Origin: Siphonodentalium dalli
Taxonomy: Eukaryota; Mollusca; Scaphopoda; Gadilida; Siphonodentaliidae
NCBI GenBank assembly: GCA_032622095.1
Contig: CP136064.1
Coordinates: forward strand, 48,118,073-48,182,072
Length of the DNA stretch: 64,000 nucleotides
Reading direction: 5' to 3'
Made by a program: the position numbers and the translations under genes. The notes under the pieces are model-generated. The model searched no databases and was not told where the DNA came from. It was given only the letters and a program-made list of their open reading frames with translations. Shown here in pieces: positions 1 through 33,200 of the stretch. Within the stretch, counting starts at the first letter, position 1; each line of letters starts with the position of its first letter.

Positions 1-19
1 AACAATCGTGTAATAAATA

Positions 20-4488: not shown

Positions 4489-4744
4489 ATTTTCGAAACC
4501 GTTCATGGTTGGATTATTATCTGATTGGATTATTTTGAAGCCGTCTAGTCGGAGTGCGTATCATCCTTATTCTGAGTGACAGAGACCAACGAAACCGCGA
4601 AAATCGTCAAAACTGAAATCTCAGTACAATCTCAAAGATTTAGATTTTTTCCTTCTGCAGTGTCGTAAAAATAATAAAATCGTTTGTTCTCATCAACTGG
4701 AAGATATTTGAATATGAAAGTATATCTATTATAACAACTGTGAT

Positions 4745-7642: not shown

Positions 7643-8136
7643 AGGCACGTGAGGCCTTAATTGTCGAAAATACTCATATTTGTTCCAAACACCGTAAACA
7701 GAAAAACATTAAAACGCATACAGTTTCGTTCATATATACCATGACCATCGCGTAAACAGCATGTTATCATAAATACCTACTATATTTTACCTAAGCAAGA
7801 GCCTGATTGGGTTACAGAGGACAGCACAATGCTACTGGCCAATCACACACAAATGGCATAAACGCTCTTTATTAGTTCCATATCAGGAATTCACCAACAA
7901 AGAACGCTCTTTATGCTTACCATCATAATATAAACAAACACAAGAAAAGTAACTTTTTATGCTTTTGTTTACATAACAATGGTTAAACATATGAGAATAA
8001 CATACTGTTTATGCGATATTTCTTATTTATATACGGACAAAGTCTGTCTACATTTTGATGTTCTTTCTGTTTGTGGCGGTCTTTGACGGGTGGAAATATT
8101 TTCACAGGATACCCACCGCCAAGGCCAATCGTACCT
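7643..8136. mobile_element. TTAA-flanked MITE, copy in block 2
   Basis: TTAA at 7639-7642 and 8137-8140 with the same ends; duplicated together with its host block. Confidence 0.78.
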
Positions 8137-9919
8137 TTAATATGGAAAACACGAAAAAATCAATAACATGTTACCTGTTGCTGCTTTGTGTATTCGAAAC
8201 GAACGCGCCATTGCATTCATGTCACGTTTGGATTCTTATTAGTAATAATGTGTCAGTGAACATGTATCTCTATCGGATGGTATATTTTTCTGTTCGATAT
8301 TAAATTCAATCATAAAGACGCCTGCATGTTCACATAATAAAGCATCAATGTGAAGTCAATCTACTACTTGATTGTTATTGATTTGTATGTTACATGTGTG
8401 ATTCTGAATAAAACACATCGATTACTGGGACTCGGGACATAAATCAAAAAGTAAAATGATTATGTTTATTCAGTAAAGAAGAATAAAATGATTTATAAAA
8501 AATATACTTGTGAAATCTTGTGATAACACCAATTATGATAATAGGAACGAAATGTAAAACTTTCAAAATATGGTTGATGAAGGTACTGTTCATGACTGAA
8601 CACTATCAACAGTCGGATACACACATGAGCGGTATATATGTCATACACAGACACACGTTTTACGTATATACACTCAAATCAGCATAACGACAATCAAGTC
8701 CTTTCGTTAGCTTTGTTGCCACAACATTTCTTTTCAAAGAACATTGATAATTCAGATGAACAATTGAAGCAATGTTCATTTTTTGACTCTCAAAAGTGGC
8801 AAGCGCTTTCAAGTGATGTTCACGAAACACTCCGATCAGGTGTTTCGAACGGAATAACAAATAATTATGCCAAAATAAGTTATTTTCCTAAATTTGAGAT
8901 CCAAGTAGTCAGAAAACATCGTCAATGTTATAAACTAATTGCACACAGCGACTATATTATTGGCGAAACCATTTCCGTAATGTTTATGTCCAATAATGAG
9001 TCCCGAATAAATTAGTAAATATTTACATTTGTTCGTAGTTCAACCGTTGTTAAAATAGTTGATGTGGTTTGAATTTTCGACAATCTTAGTTCATTGCTAC
9101 ATTCTTCCAATGGGGATAATGAAATAGGTCCACAATATGCCTTTAAATGTTACAAACAATTTAGTAAATCTCACAAATGTTTGAGTAAAATTACATATAA
9201 CCTTCAAATCTCTAACTGAGCCTAGTAACTGCTCACTGTGTGTCATGCTCATGAGAACAATTATGTTGATATCAAATATGTATACACGAATATACTTGTA
9301 TATGGACAGATGACAACGCGCATCTTTGTCGAGAATCTTTTATCGAATGAGTTGCGGGATGGTGTAAGGATCTATTTCACGTAAGCGGCGCTTTGAGTGA
9401 AATGTGATTATGCGCCGTCCGCATCGAGTTTGATAAAATATTCTAGATTATGATGCAAGTTGTGTTCTGTATTTATTCCACTCCCGTGTGTCGGGTAAGT
9501 TTAATCCATGACTGTAACTACCATTGATACTAAAACTAACGTTATCGTGATTTAAATCTGATGAAAACCGGCAATTATCTGCATCGCCCGAAGCGTATTG
9601 TTCATGATAGAGGAGTAATGTCGCAAGAGCTATACTCGCCTTTGACATCGTTTAACGGTATACTCGTAGGGTGCTCATCTTTAATCTCAAATCGACTCCA
9701 CCCGCCTCGCATGTGCAATTTGACATATATCAAGATGTTCCACCCACTTTGGAATGTTTAAAACAACCCGAAAGAGATCCATTATTTAGTTGAATATAAC
9801 GTGACTGCCAATACTGGGGTGAAGGTCGAGTATAGCTCCTGCGACTTTACCCCTCTACCATTCTTGACGTTATGTTCGTCATCGCTCTTTGTAAACAACG
9901 TCAACTCGAAGTGGTTCCG

Positions 9920-10180
9920 GTTTGTATTTCTCTTGTGGTATACAATAATATGTATCCAATGACTTGTATATTCCACTGAATACATGTGTCCCACGCCATC
10001 GGTGTGAAATAAAAATATAAAACTCCACCACTTAATAAACACCAAGTATTCACCATTCCACAAGACTCTTTTGCTCCAAAAGTACATTTCCAGTTCTCAT
10101 CCTTGTGAATGGAGTTATCTCTCTTGCATTGTTCACCTACTTTATGTCTGTTCGTTGCACTGCACAACTTGTCTAATTGT
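9920..10180 (-). pseudogene. Possible Cys-rich metalloprotease-type exon, copy 2
   Basis: Copy of 3270-3540 in the second large block. The cysteines are conserved and the differences are few (GAKESCGM for GAKEFCGM). The same reservations apply. Confidence 0.28.
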
Positions 10181-10675
10181 CAATAATTTTATTTTACATC
10201 TGTCAGCTGAACAACGAACACATTACTAAAAAATATTGAAAATAATATTCAGAAGTTATAGATCATTAGCAGCTGTTTCTGCACCAAGTTGAGACAAATA
10301 CTTTTTTATTTTCGCCATATCAGTATCAGGCCATATTAGAAATATAGGCCTATATAATGACAACGAACACTATTATTTAAAGCTGAATGAAAACAAATTG
10401 AGTCCATTTTTTAGTTTTTGACGGGTATAAGTGATAAAAGTATTTCAGAAATTTGCCTACATATCATGGTCCCCGGAACTGGACAACAATGTGATAAAGG
10501 TAAGAATATAATTTGAGGCGTCAAACCTCCAAAATGTTTGAAAATGGCTATAATGGCCATTTGGGACTTGATAATAAACATACATCACATAAATATCACG
10601 CATTAATAATTACAGTATTTAAGTCACTATGGGTCCTCGAACATAGTCTTTGTTCAATTCAAATTGAATTCATAT

Positions 10676-11106
10676 GTGACCGGCCATATCAAAAACCCTG
10701 TGCCAATGCATTCTCTTATATATGCGAGTCGACCATAGGTCGCCTCGCATATATAAGAGAATGCATTGGCCTAACAATTTTTTACAATTTTAATAATTTT
10801 TCTTGAATTCTTTAACAATTTTATAATTTTACCCATACAGAGCCCCAGACAAACATGAGCAGACGACACTCTTATATATGCTTCTATATATGTGTGGGGC
10901 TCCCTGCAGGGTCATGGATGTTTTTAATTTTATGTCCTAAAAATTGTAAGAAACATTTATTTAAAAAAAATGATAAAAAATTGTTAGGCCAATGCATTCT
11001 CTTATATATGCGAGGCGACGTATGGTCGACTCGCATATATAAGAGAATGCATTGGCACAGGGTAAAAATATCCCGTCGTACGACTGGATTTGATATGGCG
11101 GGTCAC
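10676..11106. mobile_element. MITE copy 2
   Basis: Same structure as 4031-4488, lacking about 25 bp next to the left terminus. The homology between the two large left-hand blocks ends exactly at its right terminus. Confidence 0.85.
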
Positions 11107-11568
11107 ATATAGGGATTCCACACCATTACGCTCGACTGAATTGAATTCATATAGTTCATAATTCATATAGTTCATAATTCATATAGTTCATTCGCGTATA
11201 CTACAGCTCTGGCAGAGGTGGCAGACATGAGCATAGTTAAAAACAAAACAGTTAGCGACGTCCATACACGACATGGGATTAAATTATAGGTTGGTTGTGA
11301 CTTGTGAGTCAATGAGTAATACACAAATTATTCTGCAGGAAAAAAATTCAAGTTATCTATTATAAATATATCGATAGCCACCGGCCATGTACCGACGTCC
11401 TGGATGAACGAAGAATATTACAATTCGTCAAAAAACTATTGTTAATATTTCATATCTCACAGTTGTAACTTACAAACTCGGATGTAAACCATTAGCGACA
11501 CACTATTAATTAACAGGTAACCCACAATGTATTGCCTTGTCCTTCTGGAACACGAGTCCAGACCAACT
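11107..11568. other. 3' flank of the oxidase gene
   Basis: AT-rich sequence downstream of the oxidase stop codon. There are three short ATTCATATAGTTC repeats at about 11145-11185. I see no gene and no canonical AATAAA on the minus strand. Confidence 0.5.
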
Positions 11569-11775: not shown

Positions 11776-14700
11776 CTGCAATGGAAATAAACGTTTAGAA
11801 GCTAGCTCTTCCATTTAGTGTAGACACTATTTGATGTATCCAAATAGCCACCAAAAAGCATGATAATAAGTATCATTGTACAAGGATAAGGGATCTGACA
11901 TATAACATACACATGATACAAATACTTATTCTATGGGTCATCTCCCGAGTTATTACAGTTTCCATTTCGTAGGAGTATAAATTGTTAACATATCCTCGCG
12001 CAAATAGGTTCACAATCGACCTAAAATATTCACATATTTGGGGTCATGTCTCCATTCGGAAGGTTCTCTATTCCGAAGGTTCCCTATTCCGAAGGTTCGC
12101 TATTCCGAAAGTTCGCTATTCCATTTTTTTTAATTCTATTATAAACACAGACATTTCCTCCTCGATGGTCTGCGTTACGAACATACGTCACCTTACTACC
12201 ATACCTGTAGGTGTACTAGCGTGTATGACTCGCGTGTTGGCTGACGTAAATAGGTATTGAGAAATAACATCATACGTATGATGACATTAAACATGTTATG
12301 GGAATCAACGAAGATTGAACGACCACCACGGCGGCGTAAAAATTCGAGGATTTTTGAGGTAATAAGTTATTATTATACAATTACCGCATTGTTTCGAGGT
12401 TGACACGAGAAGTTGTCAACTCGAGGAAGTCAATATTCACCAAGGCCGTAGGCCGAGGTGAATATTGAAGGATTGTCCACTTATAAACGGACAATCCTTA
12501 CCTAAAATGGTCATTAATAAATAAATGGACAATCCAACCACGCGTGGCACGCGAGCATGGGATTGTCCACTAAATGAAGACATGTATAGCTAATCCTGCA
12601 TGTTAGCTTCATATTTAATATGAAGGGCAATAACTCTATATAGAATGTTAATTTACTAAATAACGGTGATTTGTATGAGAAGAAGTGTTTTTGACGAAAT
12701 AACGGAGATATTTGAAGAAGAGTTTTTGACGAAATAACGGAAATATTCGAAGAAGTGTTTTAAAGAGCGTTTGATTGGACAAGACGTTGTGACGTTTAAC
12801 GTCGCTGGGAAAACCTGACCCATTTTCAGGTCTGATAATAAGTTATGTTAAAGGCACGTGAGGCCTTAATTGTCGAAAATATTCATATTTGTTCCAAACA
12901 CCGTAAACAGAAAAACATTAAAACGCATACAGTTTCGTTCATATATACCATGACCATCGCGTAAACAGCATGTTATCATAAATACCTACTATATTTTACC
13001 TAAGCAAGAGCCTGATTGGGTTACAGAGGACAGCACAATGCTACTGGCTAATCACACACAAATGGCATAAACGCTCTTTATTAGTTCCATATCAGGAATT
13101 CACCAACAAAGAACGCTCTTTATGTGTACCATCATAATATAAACAAACACCAGAAAAGTAACTTTTTATGCCTTTGTTTACATAACAATGGTTAAACATA
13201 TGAGAATAACATACTGTTTATGCGATATTTCTTATTTATATACGGACAAAGTCTGTCTACATTTTGATGTTCTTTCTGTTTGTGGCGGTCTTTGACGGGT
13301 GAAAATATTTTCACAGGATACCCACCACCAAGGCCAACCGTACCTTTAACCCCTGAAGTTTTTTACGTCACACAGAACTGATATTAACCTGTTGTTTCAT
13401 TGATGAGGTGAACATCATTAGATATCTCGATTTTTTCGGTACGTTTTAACATAGGAATTGGGAAAGAAACTTATGATCATATAATAAAAGTTATTATGAG
13501 TCGATAATGGCACTAAAACTCTCTCGTTTTCAGTTCGTTGTGAACTCAAAGCGATGCGATTATACGCCGATTATGAATCTAAAACAAATTATATTATAAG
13601 CCGATAACGTGCTGATTTTGGAGAGTACATGTTGGAATTGTCGTCTTCGAATACATACTGTGGTATATACTACGGTATGCATACATTTACTTTAGAGTAA
13701 TTAGAGATAAAAGTAACACCCGTGCTGCTATTTCACATTTCAAGTGATAATGGACAGACCGTGTTTTCATTTCACTTTCGTAGAGTCCCTGTCAGGACTC
13801 CGTCCATTCGTCCGTATAGGAACATTTCAAAGTATAGATAACTTGGATGTGCATTATTCGATTTATGGTGTAACCCAACTTTAGGAAAAATTAGGCCCAC
13901 TTACTACGGTTGTTGTCCCCTTAGTCTTACGGTGGTCCCTTGATGAACTTTGTATATGTATTTTGCATTGCATGTAACTCCAATGTCAATGGCCAGGTTA
14001 ACTACTAGTTGAATTGTTAACAGATACCATAATAGATGGAAGGATACCATAATGCAGCGGATTTTGTCCTTGGAGTTAAGTCAGAGTTAATAAGCTTGTT
14101 CGACTTGGAAAATAACAAGGTTTCCCATCTCAGGCTGCAGTGTGCAACACATTTAGAATGTTGCTCAAATACCAAAAGTTCAATTTGAATAGATGTTGGC
14201 ATAGTGATGGAACAACAGATGGGAATGGGATACATCACAGAAGCTACGGGTTTCAGATAACACTAACGTCTGTTGAATGAAAAGCAGCCGCCATCAATCG
14301 CGGTATGTTAAAAACCGTTCAAGTTGAATTTTCATATTTTGAATACATTTGGAATAATAATTAAGAGTCATGGGACCCCTGAGTCACTATTTGCGCACGG
14401 AGCTAGTGTAATCTTAAACCTCTTGTGGCGGTTAAGATGCGTCCGGCTCAAGCTCTTAGTCGTTCGTCATAATATCTCAGGTTTTACGAGAAATCTTCTG
14501 ATGGGCGTTCTCGTCAATCAAATCGTTTCCTGCCGTTAAGAAGAGGACTCCAGATGGGTCGTTATAAGTGGGGTGTTCAGACCGTCTCCAAATCACTTGG
14601 CGGCAATCTGCTTTGCTATCATGATGTACCCGCTGCATGCTGCTCTGGTGGATTTTTTTTGTGGATGTCAAGTCGGTTTGTTGGATAGATCCTAGCACGC

Positions 14701-17700
14701 CATCGGTTCTTGTTTCTTAGCAAGGACGTGCTTTTCTCTTCTAGTTGTGCGCTCCATAGTAAGTCATGTCTTCACGAACCGTCATTTGAGGTTTTTTCAT
14801 CTTTTCGTTTCTTCTTTTTGTTTTGTTTTTGTTTCTTTTTTTGGTGAGCAACGATAGTTTGGCCACTCTGAAAACTGTTGCCCTACTGGAATATATTCTG
14901 TATACATGATCCGGAGAGTCAAGATTGGATTTTGTTGGACTGTTTTTTAATGATAGACGGCATGTTGTGACCGTCATGTTCAGACATGACCTTTTTGCAT
15001 TCTTTCATATCTTGTCGGGTAATTTGTTGTTATGTGTGTGTGTTGATCTATTTCAACTTTACTGATTCAGTTATGCCGTCGTCTGGTCTTGAGTTCAGTA
15101 CTTGGTCTCATTTTGGTCACTTGAATTTATGTCAACGCGTGCTCCCTTATTCATCGGTGTTGCGATGCTAAATAAGACATCACAACCTGCTTGAATGAGG
15201 GGATACGGTTGTTTTAATCAACATGCGAACGGTCAATGTCACTGGAAATCAACTGAGTACTGATGTCGCTTGTTTTTATTTGTTTTACACTGCTGCTTGC
15301 AGTGTCAGTTATGAAGTACATATTCAGTCGCTGTTGTGTGTAATTTTATGAAGGATCCATGACATATTCACGAAACACCATACATATTAACTTCTTCGTT
15401 TTGGAAAATAGCAAGGTCTTCCATCTGCAGTGTGCAACACATTTAGAATGTTGCTATATTTCAAACTGAAATTCATATATTTCCAAGCCAAACAAGAGTA
15501 GTAACTCTGGTCAGAATGAATAGACTAAAAATGTAGTTGCCCTGCGAATCGGCACTTTTCCTCAGATTCGAAATCCGGCATTGAATCGGGACTCCGATGT
15601 CGACATCGAATTTCGAATCGAATTGGCTAGCCACCAGTGCTATCAACATGCGAACGGTCAATGTCACTGGAAATCAACTGATTACTGATGTCTCTTGTTT
15701 TTATTTGTTTTACACTGCTGCTTGCAGTGTCAGTTATGAAGTACATATTCAGTCGCTGTTGTGTGTCATTTTATGAAGGATCCATGACATATTCACGAAA
15801 CACCATACATATTAACTTCTTCGTTTTGGAAAATAGCAAGGTCTTCCATCTGCAGTGTGCAACACATTTAGAATGTTGCTATATTTCAAACTGAAATTCA
15901 TATATTTCCAAGCCAAACAAGAGCAGTAACTCTGGTCAGAATGAATAGACTAAAAATGTAGTTGCCCTGCGAATCGGCACTTTTCCTCAGATTCGAAATC
16001 CGGCATTGAATCGGGACTCCGATGTCGACATCGAATTTCGAATCGAATTGGCTAGCCACCAGTGCTAAGTATGTTAAAAGAAAAATATATCGCATGTGCG
16101 ATTTTCCGGTTTTATACGTTATACGCGTTTTAATTGAGTTTTATTAATTGGAGTAAAATGTTTTATAGTACATTTATCTGCATGCGCAAAAAAAGTTATC
16201 CAGTTGCAATTAATAATTACTAGTATTTCTCGATCCGGTTTGATATCAATATACGCATACTATGCAGACAGATCCGTGGCATGATCACGTGATACTAACT
16301 AGCGATATATGTATATGTACATGTACAGCCACAATGCACTTTGCGAAAATTGGGCACATAAAAAGATATGTAACCATCCCGATAACACAAACCAATCATA
16401 ACATAGTAGCTTTTGAACAGTTCGTCCCTTATAGATCTCATACGATCTTTTCGATGGTATACCTGTGTGAATGAACCTGTGTGAACGAACCTTTATTATT
16501 ACGAAATTAGCGTATGTGGTCCTGAGAATATTCGACTCGTTATTCGATTCATCCATATATTCGATTCGAATTCGGTTCGATCAATTTAGTTTGAAAACTA
16601 ACGGAGTCAGTGTAATCTTAAACCTCTTGTGGTGGTTAAGATGCGTCCGGCTCAAGCTCTTAGTCGTTCGTCATAAGATCTCCGGTTGTTTTACGAGAAT
16701 TCTTCTGATGGGCGTTCTCGTCAATCAAATCGTTTCCTGCCGTTAAGAAGAGGACTCCAGATGGGTCGTTATAAGTGGGGTGTTCAGCCCATCTCCACAT
16801 CATTTGGCGGCAATCTGCTTTGCTATCATGATGTACCCGCTGCATGCTGCTCTGTGGATTTTTGAGTGTGGATGTCAAGTCGGTTAGTTGGATGGATCCT
16901 AACACGCCATCTGTTCTTGTTCCTTAGCAATGACGGGGTTTTCTCTGCTAGTTGTGCGCTCCATACTAAGTCATATCATCACGGACCGTCATTTGAGGTT
17001 TTTTCATCTTTTCGTTTCTTTTTGTTTTGTTTTGTTTTGTTCTTGTTCTTGTTTTGCTTTTGTTTCTATTTTGGTGGACAACGATGGTTTGGCCACTCTG
17101 AAAACTGTTGCCTTACTGGAATATTCTGTATAAATGATCCGGATAGTCGAGATTGGATTTTGTTGGACTGTTTTTAATGATAGACGACATGCTGTGACCG
17201 TCATGTTGAGACATATATTATTATGCAAGGCTGATCTTCTTGCATTCTTTCATATCTTGTCGGGTAATTTGTTGTTATGTGTGTGTGTGTGTGTTGATCT
17301 ATTTCAACTTTACTGATTCAGTGATGCCGTGGTCTGGTCTTGAGTTCAGTACTTGGTATCATTTTTGGACACTTGAATTTATGTCAACGCGTGCTCCCTT
17401 ATTCATCGGTGTTGCGATGCTAAATTAGACATCACAACCTGCTTGAATGAGGGGATACGGTTGTTTTAATCAACATGCGAACGGTAAATGTCACTTGAAA
17501 TCCACTGAGTACTGATGTCGCTTGTTTTTATTTGTTTTACACTGCTGTTTGCAGTGTCAGTTGTGAAGTACATATTCAGTCGCTTCTGTGTGTCATTTTA
17601 TGAAGGATCCTTGACATTTTCACGAAACTCCATACATATTAACTTGTTCGTTTTGGAAAATTGCAAGGTATTCCATCTGCAGTGTGCAACACATTTAGAA

Positions 17701-20700
17701 TGTTGCTACATTTCAAACTGGAATTCACATATTTCCAAGTCCAACAAGAGCAGTAACTCTGGTCAGAATGAATAGACTGAAAATGCCCTGCGAATCGGCA
17801 CTTTTCCTCAGATTCGAAATCCGGCATTGAATCCGGGCGCCGATGTCGACATCGAATTTCGAATCGAATTGGCTAGCCGCCAGTTCTAAGGTATGTTAAA
17901 AGAAAATTATATCGCATGTGCAATGTCCGGTTTTATACGTTATATGCGTTTCGATTGAGTTTTATTAATTGGAGTAAAATGTTTCATAGTACATTTATCT
18001 GTATGCGCAAAAAAAGTTATCCAGTTGCATGCAGTTAATAATTACTAGTAATTCTCGATCCGGTTTGATATCAATGCGCATACTATGCAGACAGATCCGT
18101 GGCATTATCACGTGATACTAACTAGCGATATATGTATATGTACGTGTACAGCCACAATGCAGTTTGCGAAAATTGCGCACATAAAGATCTGTAACCATCC
18201 CGATAACACAAACCAATCTTAACATATTAACTTTTGAACAGTTCGTCCCTTATAGATCTCATACGATCTTTTCGATGGTATACCTGTGTGAACTAACATG
18301 TGTGAACGAACCTGTGTGAACGAACCTTTATTATTACGAAATTAGCGTATATGGTCCTCAAAATATTCGACTCGTCATTCGATTCATCCAAATTCGGTTA
18401 GAACAATTCAGTTTGAAAACGTTCGATTATCACAAAGGTAAATGCCTGGCGTTATTTTATCATTGTCCACTATTATCTTACATAAATTGTGCCGATGCAG
18501 ATGGAAACATATCGCAGGATTCGTAAGACATTGTCTGATTAGTGTGGTACAGACAACATATATATGAGCTCAATGAACCACACAAAACGGCATTACTTTG
18601 ATATAAAATAGAGTTGTGTTGGCTACCGTGACGTAGAATGTAACACATCTATATTACTACATGTTGGCAATATTAGTGTGTACAATATGTACCAGAAAGC
18701 TAATTATATTGAACCAACTGAAATGTAGCAACCAAGCATCATTTGGCAACGAGATTATATTTTATCAAGGTCACTATCAAGGTCACTGTTTCCGATGCAA
18801 TCAATCATGCGTTCATTTTGCACTGTTGCCTGATGCGCGATAACGTTGAAAATTACCCTTAGCTGTGGCTTTCTGGCCTTGGCCGATCACTGATGGCGAT
18901 GTTCGATTCGATTCGCGAGTATCACTGTGTACTCGGTTCGATATTCGGTTCAATCGGAAACGAAATATTCACAGGAGCCTATCAGCGTACTATGACAAAT
19001 AACGTGGATGCATTACACCTATATTTCAGTATTACTCTAAGCAAAATGCTTAGCGCAGTGTCAATGATAGGGACAAATTGGATATTCGAAAATACTCGAA
19101 TCAGGGGTCCGAATCGTAACGGCGATATCGACATAAAATCGAAGCTCGAATATTCTCACTGCCCTACATGTAGTATACTTATGCAACCCAGAAACTTCCT
19201 TGATCTCTCCAACTATCTTTGACTCTTTCAATCACCTGATCGAATATTCGCTCAGGAGGCCACCATAGATAGAAGTGAGCTCCATATGTTCGGACTGCAA
19301 TGTATGGGTATTCTTTTCCCCACGATGCGAGGGTCATCACCACACGAAAGCCAAATTCGATAAACCACACCGGAGTTACAATGTGAAATGTTTCTACAGA
19401 CAAAAAGGTCCAACAAGGGTTGTAGCTCTAGTAGAAAATAAATGGCCGAAACCATGCAGTAGTATATGGGTATCCCCCCCCCCCCAAGATGGGCTATCAT
19501 GTTACCGAAGACAACGATATCCGACACGTAACATCCGCGTTAAAATGTGATATATTCGTACTCACGAACTGAAGGACAGACTGATGGGCGGACGCAGTCC
19601 TCGACTATATGCCTCGAACCTCCTTCGGGTGGTCGGGGGCATAACAAATCACAAGTGAATCGTAACAATGGTCGCAATATAACCTTCTATGACACAGGAG
19701 ACCCACTTAAACTGAGCGAAGGTCCATCCCAACAAGTGCATTCAATGACATTTACATTGTTATTACTACACACCGTTTCTTTATTTCAATATCGACTGTG
19801 TCTTTCTTTAAAATGAGTTATGTTATGTCGCAAGACGGGATTGGAAATGGAGTGTCGACTGTCGAGACACACCGAATAGATTCAGTATCAGTTCTGACAA
19901 AGAGAATCCGTAATAATGTATGATCAACTATGGATTTCATTTCACTACATTGTCTAAAGTGGTGTTTGTGTTGGGGTATAAATTGGAGATAATACATTCG
20001 TATATATTAGGTGTTGCTAAACCATTCCACTGACATATAAATTTCATTACCGATGGTGAGTTGTGCTTGAATGACATACCTGCATCAACTCTCATTTTGT
20101 TTTCGGTGTTACTTGTTTGTGGTTAAGCACACGTGTCGTGTTGATACAGCTATAGTTTACTTCAACGGTATTCTATGTTTATCCTATGTATGAGGAATTG
20201 GTAAATTTGGAATAAGGGCGTGACTTGTCAGTTATATCGTGTACGATTATAGGCAAGCAGCATCAGGAACGCCACATGAAAGAAACCAAAGTGATATTTC
20301 GGTACAAACTTGAAAAATAGAAGGGCCTACTGAAACGATGGAGTTGACATTCATCAGGAAATTCACGTTGATAGTGGTTATTCAGCAACTTATCTATAAC
20401 TTGTGCGATTCTTATGAAGAGTCGACATCATACAAGTTATATAATAACTTATTCTCGAATTACAGCAAATACTTAAGGCCTGGAAATGACCCAGTACAAG
20501 TAAGCATTGCCTTTATTTTGACAGAAATTTCGGAAATAAATCCAGTGTCACAAACGATAAAAGTTGGTGCTTTGATGGTGATATCGTGGCGCGACGAGAG
20601 GTTAATATGGGATGAACATGAGTTTGATGTATATTTTTTGCACTTGCCGCAATCTCTTCTGTGGAAACCGGATTTAACGGTTATCAATAATGCCGGGCTA

Positions 20701-23700
20701 ACAGAAGAATTTGGATTCGATAATCAGGTTATGGTCGTGGATCTTGATGGAACAGTAACATGGTACCCAGACTATTTCTACACCACCAGGTGTCACATTG
20801 ACGTCAAAACATTTCCTTTCGACTCACAAACGTGTACAATATACATCGGAACGTGGACCTCAGGTGCGAACGAAGTCAACATCAAAAACATGTTCGACCA
20901 TGTAATTTTTGATAATTTTAGTGAATATGGTGAATGGGATATAGTTTCCACATCGATGTATATGAGTGAGTATCTTGACCCTGAAGATGGATCTCCAATG
21001 TTGGTTTGTCGGGTGGACATATCAATCCAACGCCGTCGGTACTACTATGTTTTGTTTACTATAGTACCCCTAATTGTACTATCTCTGCTCAGCTTGGTGG
21101 CCTTCATAATTCCATACAGATCAGGAGAGAAAATGGCATTTGCCGTCATGATGTTTCTTTCGAATTCCGTTTCACTTGCATTCTTCATTGAGTGGATGCC
21201 CCGATCGTCCGATTCGATTTCAAGATTCGCCATCTTTCTCTGCGTCCAGTATGTTCAGAGTGCACTCACTGTTGGCGCAGTTGCCGTAATACAAACATTC
21301 GCCGAACGCCACAAGAGTTATCCCCCGTCCAAGATACACATAGTAGCAATGAATATCCTCGGACGTGGCATTCGGATTTTCGACGACGAAGACTTTTGCT
21401 TGACTGAAAACACCAGCATTAGCCAATCCGGCAACAATACACCAGTATTAGACATACAGCAAGATGGAACTGAATATGGGGCAACGACCTGTTCCACCCA
21501 GAACAGATTCTCCTGGAGAGCTTTCTCTGAGATGATGAATCGCTTTTTCTTTTTATTCTTTTCTATACTCTTTATCTTAGAAATTGTGATGCTTTTTACA
21601 TCTCTGTTGTCATTGTGATGCTTTTCGAGAGAAATTTACGATGGACAAACATGACAAACATATTTGACACTTTTTATACTAAACGGATTTTCCACCCAGT
21701 TATAATAGTATATATTTGAATGGTACATTATTCACCGGGATGGGTGTTCAGGAAAATTAGCAGACGACAGATAGACAAAAGAATGATACAATCACATAAG
21801 GATCCTTGTACATTGGTGGGAAATGTTCAGATAATATGTGAACTTATAATCTGAACAATTCATAAGGGAACTACTCGTCAATGATTACTTAGTATAGAAC
21901 GGGTTTATTCCCCTTTCGAGGTAGAGGTTGAAAGTAAACTTGATTAGGTACAGTGCACGTTATATGTACTGTAGATAAACATTAAATGTATATTAACCCT
22001 TTACCCAACAGAAGGGCCCTGTGCCAATGCATTCTCTTATATATGCGAGTCGACCATAGGTCGCCTCGCATATATAAGAGAATGCATTGGCTTAACACAT
22101 TAAAAATTATAAAATTGTTAAAGAATGTAAGAAAAAATGGTAAAAAGTGTTAAAAAAAGATTTTTTTTAGGCCAATGCATTCTCTTATATATGCGAGGCG
22201 ACCTATGGTCGACTCGCATATATAATAGAATGCATTGGCACAGGGCATAACTGTAACCATCACAATGTGGTCAAGGAGCCGGTTCCAATTATATCCATAT
22301 TTGTATGGTTCTATTGAGACAGACCGAAGATATTTTAGGCTGTTGAAGCTTTATTTGGCCGGTTTTGGCCAGTTTGTTGGGTAAAGGGTTAAACATGATA
22401 GTGTTGTTATATCAGAATGTTCGCGTGTAAACCAAAACACGTGATATCCATAAGGGCGAGACATGTGACCCGGTAGTTGAATGAAGATTTTTTCAGAGTT
22501 CAAAGGAATCGACCTGGCTCCAAGATGAGTAATGCGGGCAGGCAACTCTGCGTCGCGTTTGGTTCGCTGAAATGACATCGTTATGGCGCATTCAAGTGAG
22601 CCAACAAGAACATGCCATGTTCGCCCCATGTGATATATGTGACCCGCCATATCAAATCCAGTCGTAAGTCGGGATTTTTTTCACCCTGTGCCAATGCATT
22701 CTCTTATATATGCGAGTCGACCATAGGTCGCCTCGCATATATAAGAGAATGCATTGGCCTAACAATTTTTTACAATTATAATAATTTTTTCTTGTATTCT
22801 TTAACAATTTTATAATTTTACCCATACAGAGCCCCAGACAAACATGAGCAGACGACACTAGTAGTATGGGGGGCTCGTTACCTGCACATCTAAAAATAGA
22901 TGTTATGGGGGTAAAATTGTTTGTACTAAAATATTCCCAAAAAAAAATTTCAAAACCCAAAACTTCCAAAATTTCAAAAACTTCCAAAATTTCAAAAACT
23001 TTCAAATATTTCAAAAATTTCAAAAACTTCCAAAATTTCCAGAATTTCCAAAACTTCCAAAATTTCAAAAACTTCCAAAATTTCCAAAATTTCCAAAACT
23101 TACAAAATTTCCAAAACTCCAAAAATTTCCAAAATTTCCAAAACTTACAAAATTTCCAAAATTTCCAAAATTTCCAAAACTCCAAAAATTTCCAAAACTT
23201 CAAAAATTTCAAAAATTTCAAAAACTTCCAAAATTTCAAAAACTTCCAAAATTTCAATATAATGAAGATGACGAGCAACCAATTTTCGGCCTGAGGCATT
23301 ACGTTATGGAATGAATAACGACAGCGGATCAGAATGCATACATATAGTACGTCACTTGGACATTTTATCAGTTTATCACGTGATCACTAAATGTGGCAAT
23401 CGGGTATCCACCGATGCCTGCAATGTATTATTTATAATAATTGGACTCATTGATCTCACGTAAATAATACTCTTAGTTGTTCCAATAAAATAGTTATCAA
23501 ATTCGATCACCAATAGATTTGACTGTGGAATGTAATGACCTTTAACTTATTTACCGATCTAAAGGGACACTCATTATGAATGAATGTTAACAATACAAGC
23601 GCACGAATGAAGAGCGTTGAACATATACGAAATTACTACACGAATGAATTGAACCTTGAAATTTATATTTCACATCTTACCAACAACAGCTACAGACATA

Positions 23701-26700
23701 ATCATAGTATTATACTGTCTTGCATGTACACACGCTATGACATCATTAAAGGCGGACAATCCACTCACGGTGTGACAACAGATACGGACATAGGCATAGT
23801 GTTATACAGTCTTCTATGTACCCACGCTATGACACCATTAACGTACATTGGATGTTAGGTCTATGACTCTTGAGTATGCACCAATCAATGAGCAAATGAG
23901 CCAAAAAATGAGCAAATGAGCAAAAAAAATGAGCAAATGAGCAAGAAAATGAGCAAGAAAATGAGCAAATGAGCAAGAAAATGAGCAAATGAGCAATAAA
24001 AATGAGCAAATGAGCAAGAAAATGAGCAAATGAACAAGAAAATGAGCAAATGAGCAATAAAAATGAGCAAATGAGCAAGAAAATGAGCAAATGAGCAAAA
24101 AAATGAGCAAATGGGCAAGAAAATGAGCAAATGAGCAAGAAAATGAGCAAATGAGCACTAAAAATGAGCAAATGAGCAAAAAAATGAGCAAAAAAATGAG
24201 CAAATGAGCAAAAAAATGAGCAAATGAGCAAAAAAATGAGCAAATGAGCAAAAAAATGAGCAAATGAGCAAAAAAAATGAGCAAATGAGCAATAAAAATG
24301 AGCAAATGAGCAATAAAAATGAGCAAATGAGCAAAAAAATGAGCAAATGAGCAAAAAAATGAGCAAATGAGCAAAAAAATAAGCAAATGAGCAATAAAAA
24401 TGAGCAAATGAGCAATAAAAATGAGCAAATGAGCAATAAAAATGAGCAAATGAGCAATACAAATGAGCAAATGAGCAAGAGGTGAGCAAGTGATCATGTC
24501 GATAATAAAAAGCAGCATTTTTATAGATCGAAAAGAAATTTTGTCAGAATATTGTCATCAACTCAATCAAGATTTCAACGAAACGCATTATTGACATCGA
24601 TAACTATCATGGTGCATTGACATTCATGGCCAGACAAATTTAATTCGTGTGTCTACAATACAACCTACCTATCCAAATGTCAATGCAATTATGAGTGATT
24701 TCAATATGAGCACTCTATTATATAGATATGTGTAACCTGGTGACATGATGAAATCGATTGTGATACAAAGCTAAAGTACCGCCCCATAGGGCAGATACAT
24801 AGCTAAAGTACCGCTCATAGAGCAGAAGCTAAAATACCGCTCTAACGTTGTCTGAATCTACAGCCCCTCATTATTATATCCGTGTTTGGTCAGTTTGACC
24901 ATTTTCTTCATGATCATGTTATGTATGGGTGATGTTTTCATTCGATGCTGGTATTCTATTAATCGTTCGTAACTTTTGAGAAAGAGGAACAACAACAATA
25001 ACAACAACAACAACAACAACCGCCGCCGTAGCGTGACGAGCAAACTGTGATGTTTACACACTTAAGCTCTGGATAAACAATACATATCGCATCTGCAGCA
25101 GTCTACTTCATTGTGAATTAAGTCACTCTGGGTTAGTTGACTACATGCATGCACACACAACACAGCCGAGGGTTATTGTAATTTAATGAAAATGTCACAC
25201 CGAGCTACGCCAGCTTGATTGCTTTCAAAAAATAGTGCAACTTACCTGTTGGTAATTACTCATACGAATGAAGAGTGTTTAACTGATACGAAAATACTAC
25301 ACGAATGAACTGAGTCTTGACATTTATATTTCACATCTTTCTTAAATGTTCCAACACATACAGACATAGACATAGTGTTATACAGTCTTATATGTACACA
25401 CGCTACGACACCATTAAAGGTGGACAATACACTCACGATGTGACAACATATACAGACATAGACATAGTGTTATACAGTCTTCTATGTACCAACGCTATGA
25501 CATAATTAAAGGGGGGGTAATACACGCACGGTGTGGAATGTTAAAGTGACACGAGGTAAGGGATGTTATGTAATATTGGTGTGTGAATATTAAAGGAGCA
25601 CAATGCGCTCTAAAGGGACACACGGCACTCATTTTGAATGATTGTTAAAGAAACACAATACACACGCAGTGGGTGAAAGTTAAAAAGACACAGAACAATA
25701 TTTAAACTTCAAATTTTAGGGCTCGTAATATACCATTTATGTATCGTTTCTCGCTCTACAATCTCCCCTCCCCACTTATAGATATATAACGAAGACGAGA
25801 ATAACATGTTGATGAAGTTTATTGAAATTTAATCATTGTCTGAATCTTCGACCGTTAGATTTATTTCTAAGAGTTTCTTGAATTTTCTCATCGCTTCATC
25901 TGCAGCCCATTCATTATTATATCCGTGTTTGGTCAGTTTGACCATTTTCTTCATGATCATGTTATGTATGGGTGATGTTTTCAATCGATACTGGTATTCT
26001 ATTAATCGTCTATAACTTTTGAGAAACAGAGCAAACTCTGTGTCGATGGTAGCCTCTTTTCCCGACATGCTCTCATCTCCCGACATGCTCTCTTCTCCTT
26101 TCGCATCATTGGTGACGCGTTTCATCATACTTTTGAATGTGTCCATCTCGTTGACACATCGCGCAGCTTTCTTAAGACCGAATACCGTTCTACTACCGAC
26201 GACATTATCATCTTCTGAATCTGATATCGTTCCCCGTTCATCTTCATCTGAATCTAGAACCGCTTCGTCAGATTCTAGGTCATCGGTATCTTCTCCGAAG
26301 AGAGTTGTTTTTGTCTCGGACATAACTCCGTGTTTAATCTGTTTATGTCTTTGTAGATTGTAGTTCGTCGATAAAATAATTCCGCATAAATGACACCCGT
26401 GCATTATCGCGAATTATTGGAAGAACGATCACTCTTATAAGTAGCGATAAAAAGAGAGAATAAGGTGTGGTATACAACCGTCGCGTTAAGAGTACGTTCG
26501 TCCCGGGGCTAGGGTATAGATATTTGACCGCCGGTGATTCAATTAATGCCAATTTATCAGTATGGTACTCTATGTATTCATTCATGATTTGGCTAATCGT
26601 ATGACACTTTTCTTTTCATTTTCTTCTTATTATTAGACAAACTTCCAGCTAACACTCTCTTGTTGGTTTGTTTGGACGCTTTACGTGTGTTTGTCAACTT

Positions 26701-27184
26701 ATTTGCTGCAACTTCGGCCTTAGCCATTTCAATCGCTTGAGCGATGGGCGTCACTACGTTAATATGTGGTTTTAGAACGTCTTCTTCACTATCACTATTT
26801 TTAGTTCTGTCAATAAAGTAGCGACCCTCATTATCTGGCCTTAACTTCCCATTAATCATGTCTCTGAAATGTTTTCTCCACGTTTCAATATCTGCTGGAA
26901 TATACGTCATCGACATGTTTCTTCAAATGTAGGGTACAAGTCACTCTTTTTTCTGCATTTTATTTTAGAAAGTTTATCGCCTCTTATAAAAATCGATTAT
27001 CTGGATATTTATTAATCGAATCGTCGCTAGTCAGGTACAGATAATAATTAATAATGCTATAATATGACTATAGTTTCTACAAAAAAACAATTCAAAGTTT
27101 TTCTTCATGATCATGTTATGTATGGGTGATGTTTTCATTCGATGCTGTTATTCTATTAATCGTTCGTAACTTTTGAGAAAGAGG

Positions 27185-27215
<31 letters not shown>

Positions 27216-27251
27216 TTGTTGTTGTTGCGCTGCCGCCGCCGCCGGCGACGG

Positions 27252-27283
<32 letters not shown>

Positions 27284-30200
27284 CCTCTTTCTCAAAAGTT
27301 ACGAACGATTAATAGAATAACAGCATCGAATGAAAACATCACCCATACATAACATGATCATGAAGAAAACTTTGAATTGTTTTTTTGTAGAAACTATAGT
27401 CATATTATAGTCATTATTAATTATTATCTGTACCTGACTAGCGACGATTCGATTAATAAATATCCAGATAATCGATTTTTATAAGAGGCGATAAACTTTC
27501 TAAAATAAAATGCAGAAAAAAGAGTGACTTGTACCCTACATTTGAAGAAACATGTCGATGACGTATATTCCAGCAGATATTGAAACGTGGAGAAAACATT
27601 TCAGAGACATGATTAATGGGAAGTTAAGGCCAGATAATGAGGGTCGCTACTTTATTGACAGAACTAAAAATAGTGATAGTGAAGAAGACGTTCTAAAACC
27701 ACATATTAACGTAGTGACGCCCATCGCTCAAGCGATTGAAATGGCTAAGGCCGAAGTTGCAGCAAATAAGTTGACAAACACACGTAAAGCGTCCAAACAA
27801 ACCAACAAGAGAGTGTTAGCTGGAGGTTTGTCTAATAATAAGAAGAAAATGAAAAGAAAAGTGTCATACGATTAGCCAAATCATGAATGAATACATAGAG
27901 TACCATACTGATAAATTGGCATTAATTGAATCACCGGCGGTCAAATATCTATACCCTAGCCCCGGGACGAACGTACTCTTAACGCGACGGTTGTATACCA
28001 CACCTTATTCTCTCTTTTTATCGGTACTTATAAGAGTGATCGTTCTTCCAATAATTCGCGATAATGCACGGGTGTCATTTATGCGGAATTATTTTATCGA
28101 CGAACTACAATCTACAAAGACATAAACAGATTAAACACGGAGTTATGTCCGAGACAAAAACAACTCTCTTCGGAGAAGATACCGATGACCTAGAATCTGA
28201 CGAAGCGGTTCTAGATTCAGATGAAGATGAACGGGGAACGATATCAGATTCAGAAGATGATAATGTCGTCGGTAGTAGAACGGTATTCGGTATTAAGAAA
28301 GCTGCGCGATGTGTCAACGAGATGGACACATTCAAAAGTATGATGAAACGCGTCACCAATGATGCGAAAGGAGAAGAGAGCATGTCGGGAGATGCGAGCA
28401 TGTCGGGAAAAGAGGCTACCATCGACACAGAGTTTGCTCTGTTTCTCAAAAGTTATAGACGATTAATAGAATACCAGTATCGATTGAAAACATCACCCAT
28501 ACATAACATGATCATGAAGAAAATGGTCAAACTGACCAAACACGGATATAATAATGAATGGGCTGCACATGAAGCGATGAGAAAATTCAAGAAACTCTTA
28601 GAAATAAATCTAACGGTCGAAGATTCAGACAATGATTAAATTTCAATAAACTTCATCAACATGTTATTCTCGTCTTCGTTATATATCTATAAGTGGGGAG
28701 GGGAGATTGTAGAGCGAGAAACGATACATAAATGGTATATTACGAGCCCTAAAATTTGAAGTTTAAATATTGTTCTGTGTCTTTTTAACTTTCACCCACT
28801 GCGTGTGTATTGTGTTTCTTTAACAATCATTCAAAATGAGTGCCGTGTGTCCCTTTAGAGCGCATTGTGCTCCTTTAATATTCACACACCAATATTACAT
28901 AACGTCCCTTACCTCGTGTCACTTTAACATTCCACACCGTGCGTGTATTACCCCCCCCCTTTAATTATGTCATAGCGTTGGTACATAGAAGATTGTATAA
29001 CACTATGTCTATGTCTGTATATGTTGTCACATCGTGAGTGTATTGTCCACCTTTAATGGTGTCGTAGCGTGTGTACATATAAGACTGTATAACACTATGT
29101 CTATGTCTGTATGTTGGAACATTTAAGAAAGATGTGAAATATAAATGTCAAGACTCAGTTCATTCGTGTAGTATTTTCGTATCAGTTAAACACTCTTCAT
29201 TCGTATGAGTAATTACCAACAGGTAAGTTGCACTATTTTTTGAAAGCAATCAAGCTGGCGTACCTCGGTGTGACATTTTCATTAAATTACAATAACCCTC
29301 GGCTGTGTTGTGTGTGCATGCATGTAGTCAACTAACCCAGAGTGACTTAATTCACAATGAAGTAGACTGCAGATGCGATATGTATTGTTTATCCAGAGCT
29401 TAAGTGTGTAAACATCAGTTTGCTCGTCACGCTACGGCGGCGGTTGTTGTTGTTGTTGTTATTGTTGTTGTTCCTCTTTCTCAAAAGTTACGAACGATTA
29501 ATAGAATACCAGCATCGAATGAAAACATCACCCATACATAACATGATCATGAAGAAAATGGTCAAACTGACCAAACACGGATATAATGAGGGGCTGTAGA
29601 TTCAGACAACGTTAGAGCGGTATTTTAGCTTCTGCTCTATGAGCGGTACTTTAGCTATGTATCTGCCCTATGGGGCGGTACTTTAGCTTTGTATCACAAT
29701 CGATTTCATCATGTCACCAGGTTACACATATCTATATAATAGATTGCTCATATTGAAATCACTCATAATTGCATTGACATTTGGATAGGTAGGTTGTATT
29801 GTAGACACACGAATTAAATTTGTCTGGCCATGAATGTCAATGCACCATGATAGTTATCGATGTCAATAATGCGTTTCGTTGAGATCTTGATTGAGTTGAT
29901 GACAATATTCTGACAAAATTTCTTTATCGATCTATAAAAATGCTGCTTTTTATTATCGACATGATCACTTGCTCACCTCTTGCTGATTTGCTCATTTGTA
30001 TTGCTCATTTGCTCATTTTTTTGCTCATTTGCTCATTTTTATTGCTCATTTGCTCATTTTTATTGCTCATTTGCTCATTTTTTTGCTCATTTTTTTGCTC
30101 ATTTGCTCATTTTTATTGCTCATTTGCTTATTTTTATTGCTCATTTGCTCATTTTTTTTGCTCATTTGCTCATTTTTTTGCTCATTTGCTCATTTGTTTG

Positions 30201-33200
30201 CTCATTTGCTCATTTGTATTGCTCATTTTTTTGCTCATTTGCTCATTTTTTTGCTCATTTGCTCATATTTTTGCTCATTTGCTCATTTTCTTGCTCATTT
30301 GCTCATTTTTATTGCTCATTTGCTCATTTTCTTGCTCATTTGCTCATTTTCTTGCTTATTTGCTCATTTTTTGCTCATTTGCTAATTTTCTTGCTCATTT
30401 GCTCATTTTTATTGCTCATTTGCTCATTTTCTTGTTCATTTGCTCATTTTCTTGCTCATTTGCTCATTTTTATTGCTCATTTGCTCATTTTCTTGCTCAT
30501 TTGCTCATTTTCTTGCTCATTTGCTCATTTTTTTGCTCATTTGCTCATGTTTTTGCTCATTTGCTCATTTTTTTGCTCATTTGCTCATTGATTGGTGCAT
30601 ACTCAAGAGTCATAGACCTAACATCCAATGTACGTTAATGGTGTCATAGCGTGGGTACATAGAAGACTGTATAACACTATGCCTATGTCCGTATCTGTTG
30701 TCACACTGTGAGTGGATTGTCCGCCTTTAATGATGTCATAGCGTGTGTACATGCAAGACAGTATAATACTATGATTATGTCTGTAGCTGTTGTTGGTAAG
30801 ATGTGAAATATAAATTTCAAGGTTCAATTCATTCGTGTAGTAATTTCGTATATGTTCAACGCTCTTCATTCGTGCGCTTGTATTGTTAACATTCATTCAT
30901 AATGAGTGTCCCTTTAGATCGATAAATAAGTTAAAGGTCATTACATTCCACAGTCAAATCTATTGGTGATCGAATTTGATAACTATTTTATTGGAACAAC
31001 TAAGAGTATTATTTACGTGAGATCAATGAGTCCAATTATTATAAATAATACATTGCAGGCATCGGTGGATACCTGATTGCCACATTTAGTGATCACGTGA
31101 TAAACTGATAAAATGTCCAAGTGACGTACTATATGTATGCATTCTGATCCGCTGTCGTTATTCATTCCATAACGTAATGCCTCAGGCCAGTCGAAAATTG
31201 GTTGCTCGTCATCTTCAATATATTGAAATTTTGGAAGTTTTTGAAATTTTGGAAGTTTTTGAAATTTTGGAAATTTTTGAAGTTTTGGAAATTTTTGGAG
31301 TTTTGGAAATTTTGGAAGTTTTGGAAATTTTGGAAGTTTTGGAAATTTTGGAAATTTTTGGAGTTTTGGAAATTTTGTAAGTTTTGGAAATTTTGGAAAT
31401 TTTGGAAGTTTTTGAAATTTTGGAAGTTTTGGAAATTTTGGAAGTTTTTGAAATTCTGGAAATTTTGGAAGTTTTTGAAATTTTTGAAATATTTGAAAGT
31501 TTTTGAAATTTTGGAAGTTTTTGAAATTTTGGAAGTTTTGGGTTTTGAAAAAAAAAATTGGGAATATTTTAGTACAAACAATTTTACCCCCATAAAATCT
31601 ATTTTTAGATGTGCAGGTAACGAGCCCCCCATACTACTGACACTCTTCTATATGCTTCTATATATGTGTGGGGCTCCCTGCAGGGTAATGGATGTTTTTT
31701 ATTTTATGTCCTAAAAAATGTAAGAAACATTTATTTTAAAAAATGATAAAAAATTGTTAGGCCAATGCATTCTCTTATATATGCGAGGCGACCATGGTCG
31801 ACTCGCATATATAAGAGAATGCATTGGCACAGGGTAAAAAAAATCCCGACTTACGACTGGATTTCATATGGCGGGTCACATATGATTGGCAAATGAAAAA
31901 AATAATACGCAAATATATTCGACACTGCCCACAATGCGCACTGCTGTATAAAGACATATTGTGGACTTGTTCGGGTGCGTGAAAGTTATATTAAGTTAGT
32001 ACCCAAGCGCTGTGTCAACTGGGGGAATGTAGAAGTCTACTAACATCGCCGAAAATCTCAAATAAATCGACCATACAACTCCATAGAAAACATCGTCTGT
32101 ACTACTCTCAATTGTGATTATTTACATCTCGATTCGGGACGCAATTATTGACTATAATCTAACGCAAATGAGTTCGCCATCGAGACTCGTCGCATTTAAT
32201 TAATATATAAGAATGAAAGTGTGTGTTGTAAATTAGGATTAATATTCGTAAAAATAACTACTTTGAGCATGATTATTCCCCATTTCTATTTGATCACCCT
32301 GCATGTATCACCGGCGTGTTTCACATCACTTTAATCGCAAGCTGGTGATCCGCGTTCAACTTGATTGGTGGTCATCCGTTAAATATGTAAAGGGAATACG
32401 CGCTCGGGTTATAATCTATCAATGTTATTGTCTGTTCCATGGAACAAATTCACTTCCCAATTTCTAGTTGGGTTGTCAGAATCGTGGGTGCACGTGTGTG
32501 TGATCGCTAGACACGTGCTATATACCCCAGCTACCCATGAACCAAACCAAATTCCCCTGCTCGATTAAACTTCATATGGTGTCTCTATTGGGAGGGGGTC
32601 AACTGGTTCAAAAAATATAATTTTAGCCACCCCATACATGCATCTACGATTAAAATATAATACACGCGTGTATCCATACCCAAATAACATGCAGGGTTCG
32701 CGCTGCCACTTGCCAAATTTGCCAATGGCAAAAATAATTCACATCTGGCAAAAACTATTTTCATTTGGCAAAAGTTTTGGCAAGTCACTTATTAATTCTC
32801 AATAAAGTTGAAAAATATCGATTAATCAATACCATTCGTTTTAGGAAACTACTAGTATTACAATAGAATTATATCAGTGGTGTTTTATATGGTTTCGCAA
32901 AAGTTAACACCTCCATTAAGATGCATTTAGTCTGATATCATTAGTATCGATTTGGGTGGAGGTGATGGTGGTGTTTATATGGCTAATCCGCTTGTGATGT
33001 TCCCTTCTGATGAAGCGACGGTTCTACCATTTTATTGTTCGGTGATTGTTTTATTTATTGTTGTATGATAAACCACAATAGAGTTGCGAGTATAATTATT
33101 AACTAACTGCTGTCCTATCGATATCAAACGTCGTTCAAACCGCGAGTGTCGAAACATAAAACTCAATCAAGGTTGCAGAAAATTATAATATCAGTGATGA

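What the first reader, a model, noticed from the sequence alone, without database searches (positions are those of the whole stretch)
22860..31638. An 8.8-kb palindrome that looks like an integrated snap-back Polinton
The whole element is one inverted duplication with an AG-starting terminus, and it carries a precise 6-bp target duplication inside a MITE whose empty site is known from two other copies here. Polintons are thought to replicate by protein-primed synthesis from their ends. Defective genomes made only of one end, duplicated head to head, are known for protein-primed DNA viruses such as adenoviruses. An integrated copy would mean that such defective genomes can be used as integration substrates when the parent supplies the enzymes. 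The combination of features is directly visible; the mechanism is inference.
Basis: partly seen in the sequence, partly recalled or inferred. Interest (0 to 1): 0.9.

Follow-up and report, generated by a model that had tools for sequence, protein, structure and literature searches.

The report
Palindromic Polinton satellite, many genomic copies
The 8.8-kb mirror-image element is real and is one copy of a repeated family of cut-down virus-like transposons that share their ends with Polintons of the same animal genome but are built as two head-to-head copies of one half, which could make a hidden step of Polinton DNA replication testable.

Summary
Confirmed: 22860-31638 is one inverted duplication (8,779 bp, arms 97% alike) with ends AGTAGT...ACTACT and a 6-bp target duplication, GACACT, inside a MITE. 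The host genome (2.23 Gb) shows it is not a one-off. Of 24 places examined, 11 are palindromes reaching the inner gene region on both sides, 5 have one arm shortened, 3 are short palindromes and 5 show none. All 15 elements with both ends readable have perfect, mutually different 6-bp duplications. Among 150 listed copies of its marker gene, 45 of 45 close pairs are head to head. The genome also holds many open DNA_pol_B_2 frames; the one Polinton read (right end missing) shares the terminus, the 107-aa gene (77% identity) and the start of a putative capsid gene. So this is a non-autonomous, Polinton-derived family that spreads as a palindrome: nine unrelated sites share one kind of centre, so the palindrome predates insertion. 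I infer protein-primed replication in trans through a hairpin intermediate.

The parts
22860..31638 (.). whole palindromic element, 8,779 bp
22854..22859 (.). left copy of target duplication GACACT
31639..31644 (.). right copy of target duplication GACACT
22860..22865 (+). terminal repeat AGT AGT (Maverick end motif)
   Evidence: motif described in PMC8097293
31633..31638 (-). terminal repeat ACT ACT (AGT AGT on the minus strand)
22860..27248 (+). left arm
27250..31638 (-). right arm, inverted copy of the left
22957..23255 (.). subterminal tandem array, 9-bp unit, left arm (right arm 31223-31539)
23887..24478 (.). tandem array, ~20-bp unit, left arm (right arm 29980-30589)
25829..26404 (-). 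p191, ORF with a sub-threshold C2H2 zinc-finger match, left copy
   Evidence: Pfam on the right copy; marker of the palindromes
28064..28639 (+). p191, right copy
26593..26916 (-). p107, homologue of a Polinton gene next to the putative capsid gene, left copy
   Evidence: homology shown with the right copy
27552..27875 (+). p107, right copy
26343..26585 (-). 80-aa ORF, left copy; its start matches the start of the 421-aa Polinton ORF: truncated relic
   Evidence: match shown with the right copy
27883..28125 (+). the same relic, right copy
27185..27283 (.). centre: AAC/GTT stem with GC-rich inner hairpin
27285..27369 (+). diverged fragment of p191 beside the centre (92% over 85 bp to 28439-28523)
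22635..22859 (.). left half of the interrupted MITE
31639..31883 (.). right half of the interrupted MITE

Best explanation
The element is a copy of a non-autonomous, Polinton-derived family whose common form is a palindrome. Shown: Polinton end motif and 6-bp target duplication; terminus and p107 shared with a polymerase- and integrase-bearing Polinton of the same genome; many palindromic copies; one kind of centre shared by nine unrelated sites. Inferred: Polintons supply the protein-primed polymerase and integrase in trans; the polymerase starts at the (AGT)2 end, reaches the self-complementary centre and copies back, or the displaced strand folds on itself, so that replication passes through a hairpin that tends to keep the two ends alike; the double-ended duplex is then integrated like an ordinary Polinton. 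The first palindrome arose by a snap-back (template switch) in a rearranged Polinton deletion derivative and has since been propagated.
For: (1) 14 of 14 elements with both ends found by one pattern have identical 6-bp duplications, all different; a 15th, L016/L017, agrees by reading. Flanks of the 14 are unrelated. (2) Left termini of 14 of 14 elements match the terminus of L039 (one-against-one E 1.1e-19 or better); that Polinton encodes DNA_pol_B_2 and rve plus chromo, with sub-threshold adenovirus-protease and AAA/A32 matches. (3) p107 is 77% identical to one of its ORFs (E 2e-60), and the 80-aa ORF begins like the next ORF (20 aa, 80%, E 2e-7). (4) 45 of 45 close pairs of p191 and 40 of 42 of p107 are head to head, among 150 listed copies of each. 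(5) Centre shared by nine loci. (6) First and second terminal trinucleotides agree in 42 of 44 ends, AGT-AGT or AGA-AGA (some ends are tandem copies, so not all independent), as expected if the end is copied from the inner repeat. (7) The first 45 nt differ by 0.71 on average within elements and 6.97 between; 0 of 20,000 shuffled pairings reach this, without control for subfamily.
Against: No episome, terminal protein or replication intermediate was observed. The mate end is strictly nearest in 8 of 14 elements, tied in 3 and not nearest in 3. Arms pair by element in the trees in only 6 of 13, 2 of 5 and 3 of 3 elements for three segments; many branches are near zero. Of 38 positions unique to one element and in both its arms, 16 come from L024 and L036, sole members of their types there, and 11 from L030; 88 positions differ between arms. 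Gene conversion could give the same likeness. No Polinton with the whole arm or with p191 was found: 0 of 150 listed p191 copies lie within 25 kb of the 69 listed polymerase loci, but both lists are truncated. The right end of the Polinton read was not fetched, so its own target duplication is untested. 5 of 24 places show no palindrome. L023 and L031 each have one damaged end and were left out of the duplication count.
Confidence: 0.77

Rival explanations
1. One-off integrated snap-back genome: a defective genome made from one Polinton end was formed and integrated here.
For: End-to-end palindrome with Polinton ends and duplication; Polinton genes present in the genome.
Against: The same kind of centre and arms occur at other loci with other duplications; the arm is not a simple end of the Polinton read.
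Confidence: 0.08
2. Chromosomal origin: inserted elements with ordinary inverted ends became palindromic after insertion by inverted duplication, and arms are kept alike by gene conversion.
For: Gene conversion between palindrome arms is known elsewhere (recalled); some elements have one arm shortened; arm pairing in trees is patchy.
Against: One kind of centre is shared by nine unrelated sites, so the palindrome existed before these insertions. L020, with a type A body, has AGAAGA at both ends with identical inner blocks. Gene conversion as the cause of arm likeness alone is not excluded.
Confidence: 0.12
3. A fold-back cut-and-paste DNA transposon of another superfamily that happens to leave 6-bp duplications.
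For: Long inverted repeats with tandem arrays resemble fold-back elements (recalled); no polymerase or integrase gene seen inside.
Against: Terminus, p107 and the start of the next ORF are those of a polymerase- and integrase-bearing Polinton in the same genome; paired terminal trinucleotides are the Maverick end motif.
Confidence: 0.02
4. Assembly or read-chimera artefact.
For: Long palindromes are a known source of false fold-backs (recalled).
Against: Target duplications in 15 of 15 elements with both ends readable, unrelated flanks, arm differences, shared centre.
Confidence: 0.01

Closest known systems
Polinton/Maverick elements (PMC8097293: section 7 and passages read; PMC4028283 and PMC6431247: passages read)
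   Same: (AGT)2//(ACT)2 ends, 6-bp target duplication, terminal inverted repeats, one shared gene, Polintons present in the same genome
   Different: No polymerase, integrase or capsid gene seen; the inverted repeat covers the whole element, against 46-1,447 bp in intact vertebrate Mavericks; elements with both ends measured here are 2.6-9.5 kb, against about 17 kb
Snap-back defective genomes of adeno-associated virus (PMC8235507, passages read)
   Same: Self-complementary duplication of one end, symmetric and asymmetric forms, dependent on the parent's enzymes
   Different: Those are packaged virus genomes replicated with Rep; here Polinton-type ends and many integrated copies (at least 45 head-to-head pairs listed)
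Hairpin deletion derivative of the kalilo plasmid of Neurospora (Vierula and Bertrand 1992; title only, seen in the reference list of PMC11071308)
   Same: By its title, a deletion derivative forming hairpin and duplex DNA; kalilo as a protein-primed linear plasmid is recalled
   Different: Mitochondrial plasmid; I do not know of integrated multi-copy forms
Defective adenovirus genomes with duplicated left ends (recalled; one search found no paper)
   Same: Protein-primed parent, one end duplicated head to head
   Different: Not known to me as integrated families
Parvovirus inverted terminal repeat (recalled)
   Same: T-shaped hairpin layout predicted at many centres
   Different: No Rep-type domain in the ORFs scanned; the hairpin is internal in the integrated form; the window's own centre does not fold as a T

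Membership tests
Polinton/Maverick (autonomous) | 6-bp target duplication | tested here: met
   window GACACT; 15 of 15 elements with both ends readable; L023 and L031, with one damaged end each, not counted
Polinton/Maverick (autonomous) | conserved end motif such as (AGT)2//(ACT)2 | tested here: met
   AGTAGT...ACTACT in the window; AGT-AGT or AGA-AGA in 42 of 44 ends; motif from PMC8097293. The Polinton L039 begins AGAAGA; AGA-AGA is not among the motifs I saw in that paper
Polinton/Maverick (autonomous) | protein-primed DNA polymerase B gene | tested here: not met
   no open frame above 247 codons in the element; no such domain in the 4 ORFs scanned; present in L039/L040
Polinton/Maverick (autonomous) | retroviral-type integrase gene | tested here: not met
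   present in L040. Hence filed as Polinton-derived and non-autonomous
Polinton/Maverick (autonomous) | capsid, protease and packaging ATPase genes | tested here: not met
   only a 20-aa match to the start of a 421-aa ORF placed like a major capsid gene, itself without a domain hit
Non-autonomous Polinton derivative | ends and gene fragments shared with a Polinton of the same genome | tested here: met
Non-autonomous Polinton derivative | mobilisation in trans by Polinton enzymes | not testable with these tools
   inferred from ends and duplications
Snap-back defective genome | self-complementary genome with one parental end at both ends | tested here: met
Snap-back defective genome | arm is a colinear piece of one parental end | tested here: not met
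   only terminus, p107 region and short pieces match the one Polinton read; a closer parent may exist unread
Parvovirus-type hairpin replicon | T-shaped terminal hairpin | tested here: inconclusive
   11 of 13 centres give a three-way junction in the minimum-energy fold; the window and L022 do not, and the centroids of L015, L026 and L036 keep only one inner hairpin. Any palindrome folds well, so the z-scores do not test the T shape
Parvovirus-type hairpin replicon | Rep-type nickase | tested here: not met
   none in the 4 ORFs scanned against Pfam

The most novel reading that the evidence does not exclude
The palindromes are head-to-head dimers of a distinct kind of replicon: a monomer with one protein-primed (AGT)2 end and one T-shaped hairpin end, which copies itself round the hairpin with borrowed Polinton enzymes and integrates as the dimer. 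This would be a stable satellite lineage that combines adenovirus-type and parvovirus-type replication, with its own zinc-finger-like gene (p191), and not a chance defective genome.
Probability: 0.22. Interest if true: 0.92.

Novelty: new variant of a known kind. Interest (0 to 1): 0.82.

Why it matters
Replication of Polintons is largely inferred from gene content and end motifs (for the end motif, PMC8097293). Here a genome seems to keep the products: ends whose two trinucleotides agree, ends that tend to match within an element, and palindromes that were mobile as palindromes. That would make protein-primed jumping back, snap-back formation and the use of defective genomes as integration substrates testable by counting in a single assembly. 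It also suggests that animal Polintons have parasites of their own.

Tried and rejected
Relatives in viral contigs: p107 and p191 found none; a degenerate motif gave 5 contigs without convincing homology. Solved structures: none for p191. Pfam: only sub-threshold C2H2 matches, in p191. The protein database was switched off. That the arm equals one Polinton end was tested on L039/L040 only and rejected for that element. A new template switch at this locus was dropped after the shared centre appeared. Host species was not identified; a receptor-like frame at 20314-21618 suggests an animal.

Literature: searches (20 of 44 papers listed; 2 of 2; 12 of 47; 4 of 4), on Polinton with palindrom, non-autonomous, foldback/snapback/inverted duplication/hairpin, and parvovirus/hairpin/Bidnaviridae, listed nothing whose title or abstract start describes palindromic Polintons. 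Seven papers were opened, none read whole. Most subscription journals and repeat databases are not in the library, so novelty is provisional.

Genome searches that never got an answer: centre DNA (and repeats up to 95), Polinton terminus L039:4603-5202, centre pattern. So the share of Polintons with these ends and the number of centres are unknown.

Because arm pairing is weaker than first written, the best explanation went from 0.80 to 0.77, the gene-conversion rival from 0.10 to 0.12 and the novel case from 0.25 to 0.22.
Full report
Observation. The window holds one end-to-end inverted duplication, 22860-31638, 8,779 bp, 97.0% between arms. It starts AGTAGTATGG, ends CCATACTACT, and GACACT flanks both sides. 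The interrupted MITE matches two sibling MITEs, in each of which the two halves overlap by exactly these six bases; both siblings lie in one 4.5-kb direct duplication, so they count as one witness. Outside the tandem arrays the arms differ at 14 of 3,367 aligned positions (3 of 612, 3 of 917, 7 of 1,757, 1 of 81). Six substitutions fall in the four ORF pairs compared and all six change the amino acid.

Host genome. The window lies in an assembly of 2.227 Gb in 9 contigs. A search with the first 601 bases of the element listed 42 matches, 40 of 1,996 first-look candidates having been scored. These are 24 places (L016 and L017 are one element, L028 and L029 one stretch). By arm matches and self-alignment, 11 are palindromes that reach the inner gene region on both sides, some with internal losses (window, L015, L016/17, L018, L022, L023, L024, L030 with one cut end, L034, L036, L038); 5 have one arm shortened (L014, L020, L025, L026, L033); 3 are short palindromes of the terminal part (L027, L031, L032; the flanks of L031 and L032 read as one locus duplicated); 5 show no palindrome in the stretch read (L019, L021, L028/29, L035, L037).

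Ends and duplications. In 14 elements one pattern found both ends; in all 14 the flanking six bases are identical, and they differ between elements. A 15th, L016/L017, agrees (GTGCTC, by reading). L023 and L031 have one damaged end each and were not counted; L030 has no right end. Flanks of the 14 share no similarity except the two MITE halves of the window. First and second terminal trinucleotides agree in 38 of 38 ends found by a pattern that allowed disagreement and in four more ends; L023 left and L031 left depart: 42 of 44. Five of these ends are tandem copies in L028/29 and L033, so not all are independent; further subterminal modules seen I took not to be ends. Vertebrate Mavericks are described with the end motif (AGT)2//(ACT)2, 6-bp duplications, and end repeats expected to serve jumping back (PMC8097293, section 7 and passages).

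Link to Polintons. A search for DNA_pol_B_2 (PF03175) listed 149 matches at 69 places, 69 of 1,596 candidates having been scored, in frames of 803-1,330 codons; one listed match has an internal stop. I read one element in two separate pieces (L039, L040). Its left terminus begins AGAAGAATAGGGGGCTCGTT and matches the arm (85% over 81 bp, E 2e-18). The left termini of 14 of 14 elements match it at E 1.1e-19 or better in one-against-one comparison, over 57 to 136 aligned bases. It encodes the polymerase, rve plus chromo, TBP and PC4 domains, and has sub-threshold adenovirus-protease and AAA/A32 matches. p107 is 77% identical to its ORF L040:5873-6214 (E 2e-60), and the first 20 residues of the 80-aa ORF are 80% identical to the start of the next, 421-aa ORF. 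By position that ORF looks like the major capsid gene and p107 like PW of vertebrate Mavericks; this is inference from gene order, without a domain hit. p191 has no match there. The rest of the arm is not colinear with this Polinton. An inverted match between L039:5692-5805 and L040:9877-9990 (95.6%) indicates the other inverted repeat, but the right end was not obtained.

Palindrome as the common form. With p191 as query, 150 of 3,234 candidates were scored and listed, 142 of 150 without an internal stop; with p107, 150 of 989. Among neighbours less than 8 kb apart, 45 of 45 p191 pairs and 40 of 42 p107 pairs are head to head. None of the 150 p191 copies lies within 25 kb of the 69 listed polymerase places and 1 of 150 p107 copies does. 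All these lists are truncated.

Centre. Nine loci of the window's type (window, L014, L015, L020, L022, L023, L026, L030, L034) carry the same kind of centre: an AAC run, a GC-rich self-complementary stretch, CAACAACAACAAT and a TTG run, in either orientation and with varying repeat numbers; L025 keeps the last part. Since eight of them that were compared or read have different flanking sequence, the palindrome was formed before these insertions. Another type (L016, L018, L036, L038) has other GC-rich centres. Folded as single-stranded DNA, 11 of 13 centres give a stem with two inner hairpins in the minimum-energy structure; the window and L022 do not, and in L015, L026 and L036 the centroid keeps only one. 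All fold better than shuffles, but any palindrome would.

Likeness of ends and arms. Over the first 45 nt the two ends of an element differ by 0.71 on average and ends of different elements by 6.97; 0 of 20,000 shuffled pairings are as low, without control for subfamily; the mate is strictly nearest in 8 of 14, tied in 3, not nearest in 3. Across arm segments, 38 positions are unique to one element and present in both its arms, of which 16 come from L024 and L036 (sole members of their types in the alignment) and 11 from L030; 88 positions differ between arms. In trees, arms pair by element in 6 of 13, 2 of 5 and 3 of 3 elements for the three segments, with many branches near zero. So the ends show clear likeness within elements, and the inner arms only partial evidence. 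This fits a hairpin stage or copying from one arm; chromosomal gene conversion remains possible for this point.

Genes. An open p191 was found in 24 copies in the loci (26 rows, two read twice in overlapping stretches). Between the window type and L024 dS is about 0.31 and dN 0.15-0.16; among close copies the pooled rates are about equal (513.5 of 31,722 synonymous sites, 2,135.5 of 125,871 others). For p107 against the Polinton dS is 0.36 and dN 0.13; among close copies 39 of 5,846 against 52 of 23,326. Pairs are not independent. So there is some constraint on both over longer times, and among close copies a sign of it for p107 only.

Comparison. What it works like: a snap-back defective genome and its dimers, as in adeno-associated virus (PMC8235507, passages) and, by title only, the kalilo derivative (reference list of PMC11071308); adenovirus cases are recalled. 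What it is: a non-autonomous Polinton derivative; it fails the gene criteria for a Polinton proper. Bidnaviruses, which combine parvovirus and Polinton genes, are described as having terminal repeats that do not form parvovirus-type hairpins (PMC4061559, passages).

Verdict. Observation confirmed; interpretation partly right; the finding grows from one odd locus to a repeated family of mobile palindromes with Polinton ends. The novelty claim rests on searches in an open-access library only.

Noticed in passing
window 1-4490 and 6646-11108: 4.5-kb direct duplication, 96-97% identical, that includes the MITE serving as empty site.
   Followed up: partly
window 14397-18390: Overlapping tandem duplications of 0.4-1.3 kb, 89-99% identical.
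   Followed up: no
window 20314-21618 (+): 434-codon open frame that looks like an intronless Cys-loop (nicotinic) receptor subunit; name from reading, no domain search run.
   Followed up: no
terminal positions 9-14 and 21-26 of the elements, e.g. window 22868-22873: Two short blocks just inside the ends vary strongly between elements but mostly agree at both ends of one element, between constant blocks CTCGTT and CACATCTAAAAATAGA.
   Followed up: partly
L028:409, L028:6934 and L029:3742 (C9 near 113.97 Mb): Three direct copies of one terminus spaced about 6.5 kb, a tandem array and not a palindrome.
   Followed up: no
L018:4933-5434 and the same place in L016 and L017: Polinton subterminal sequence lies head to head around the centre, as if a second end were nested inside.
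   Followed up: partly
G000 C5:75038248-75046944 and C8:54452273-54473805: Polymerase genes in same-strand pairs about 7 and 20 kb apart.
   Followed up: no
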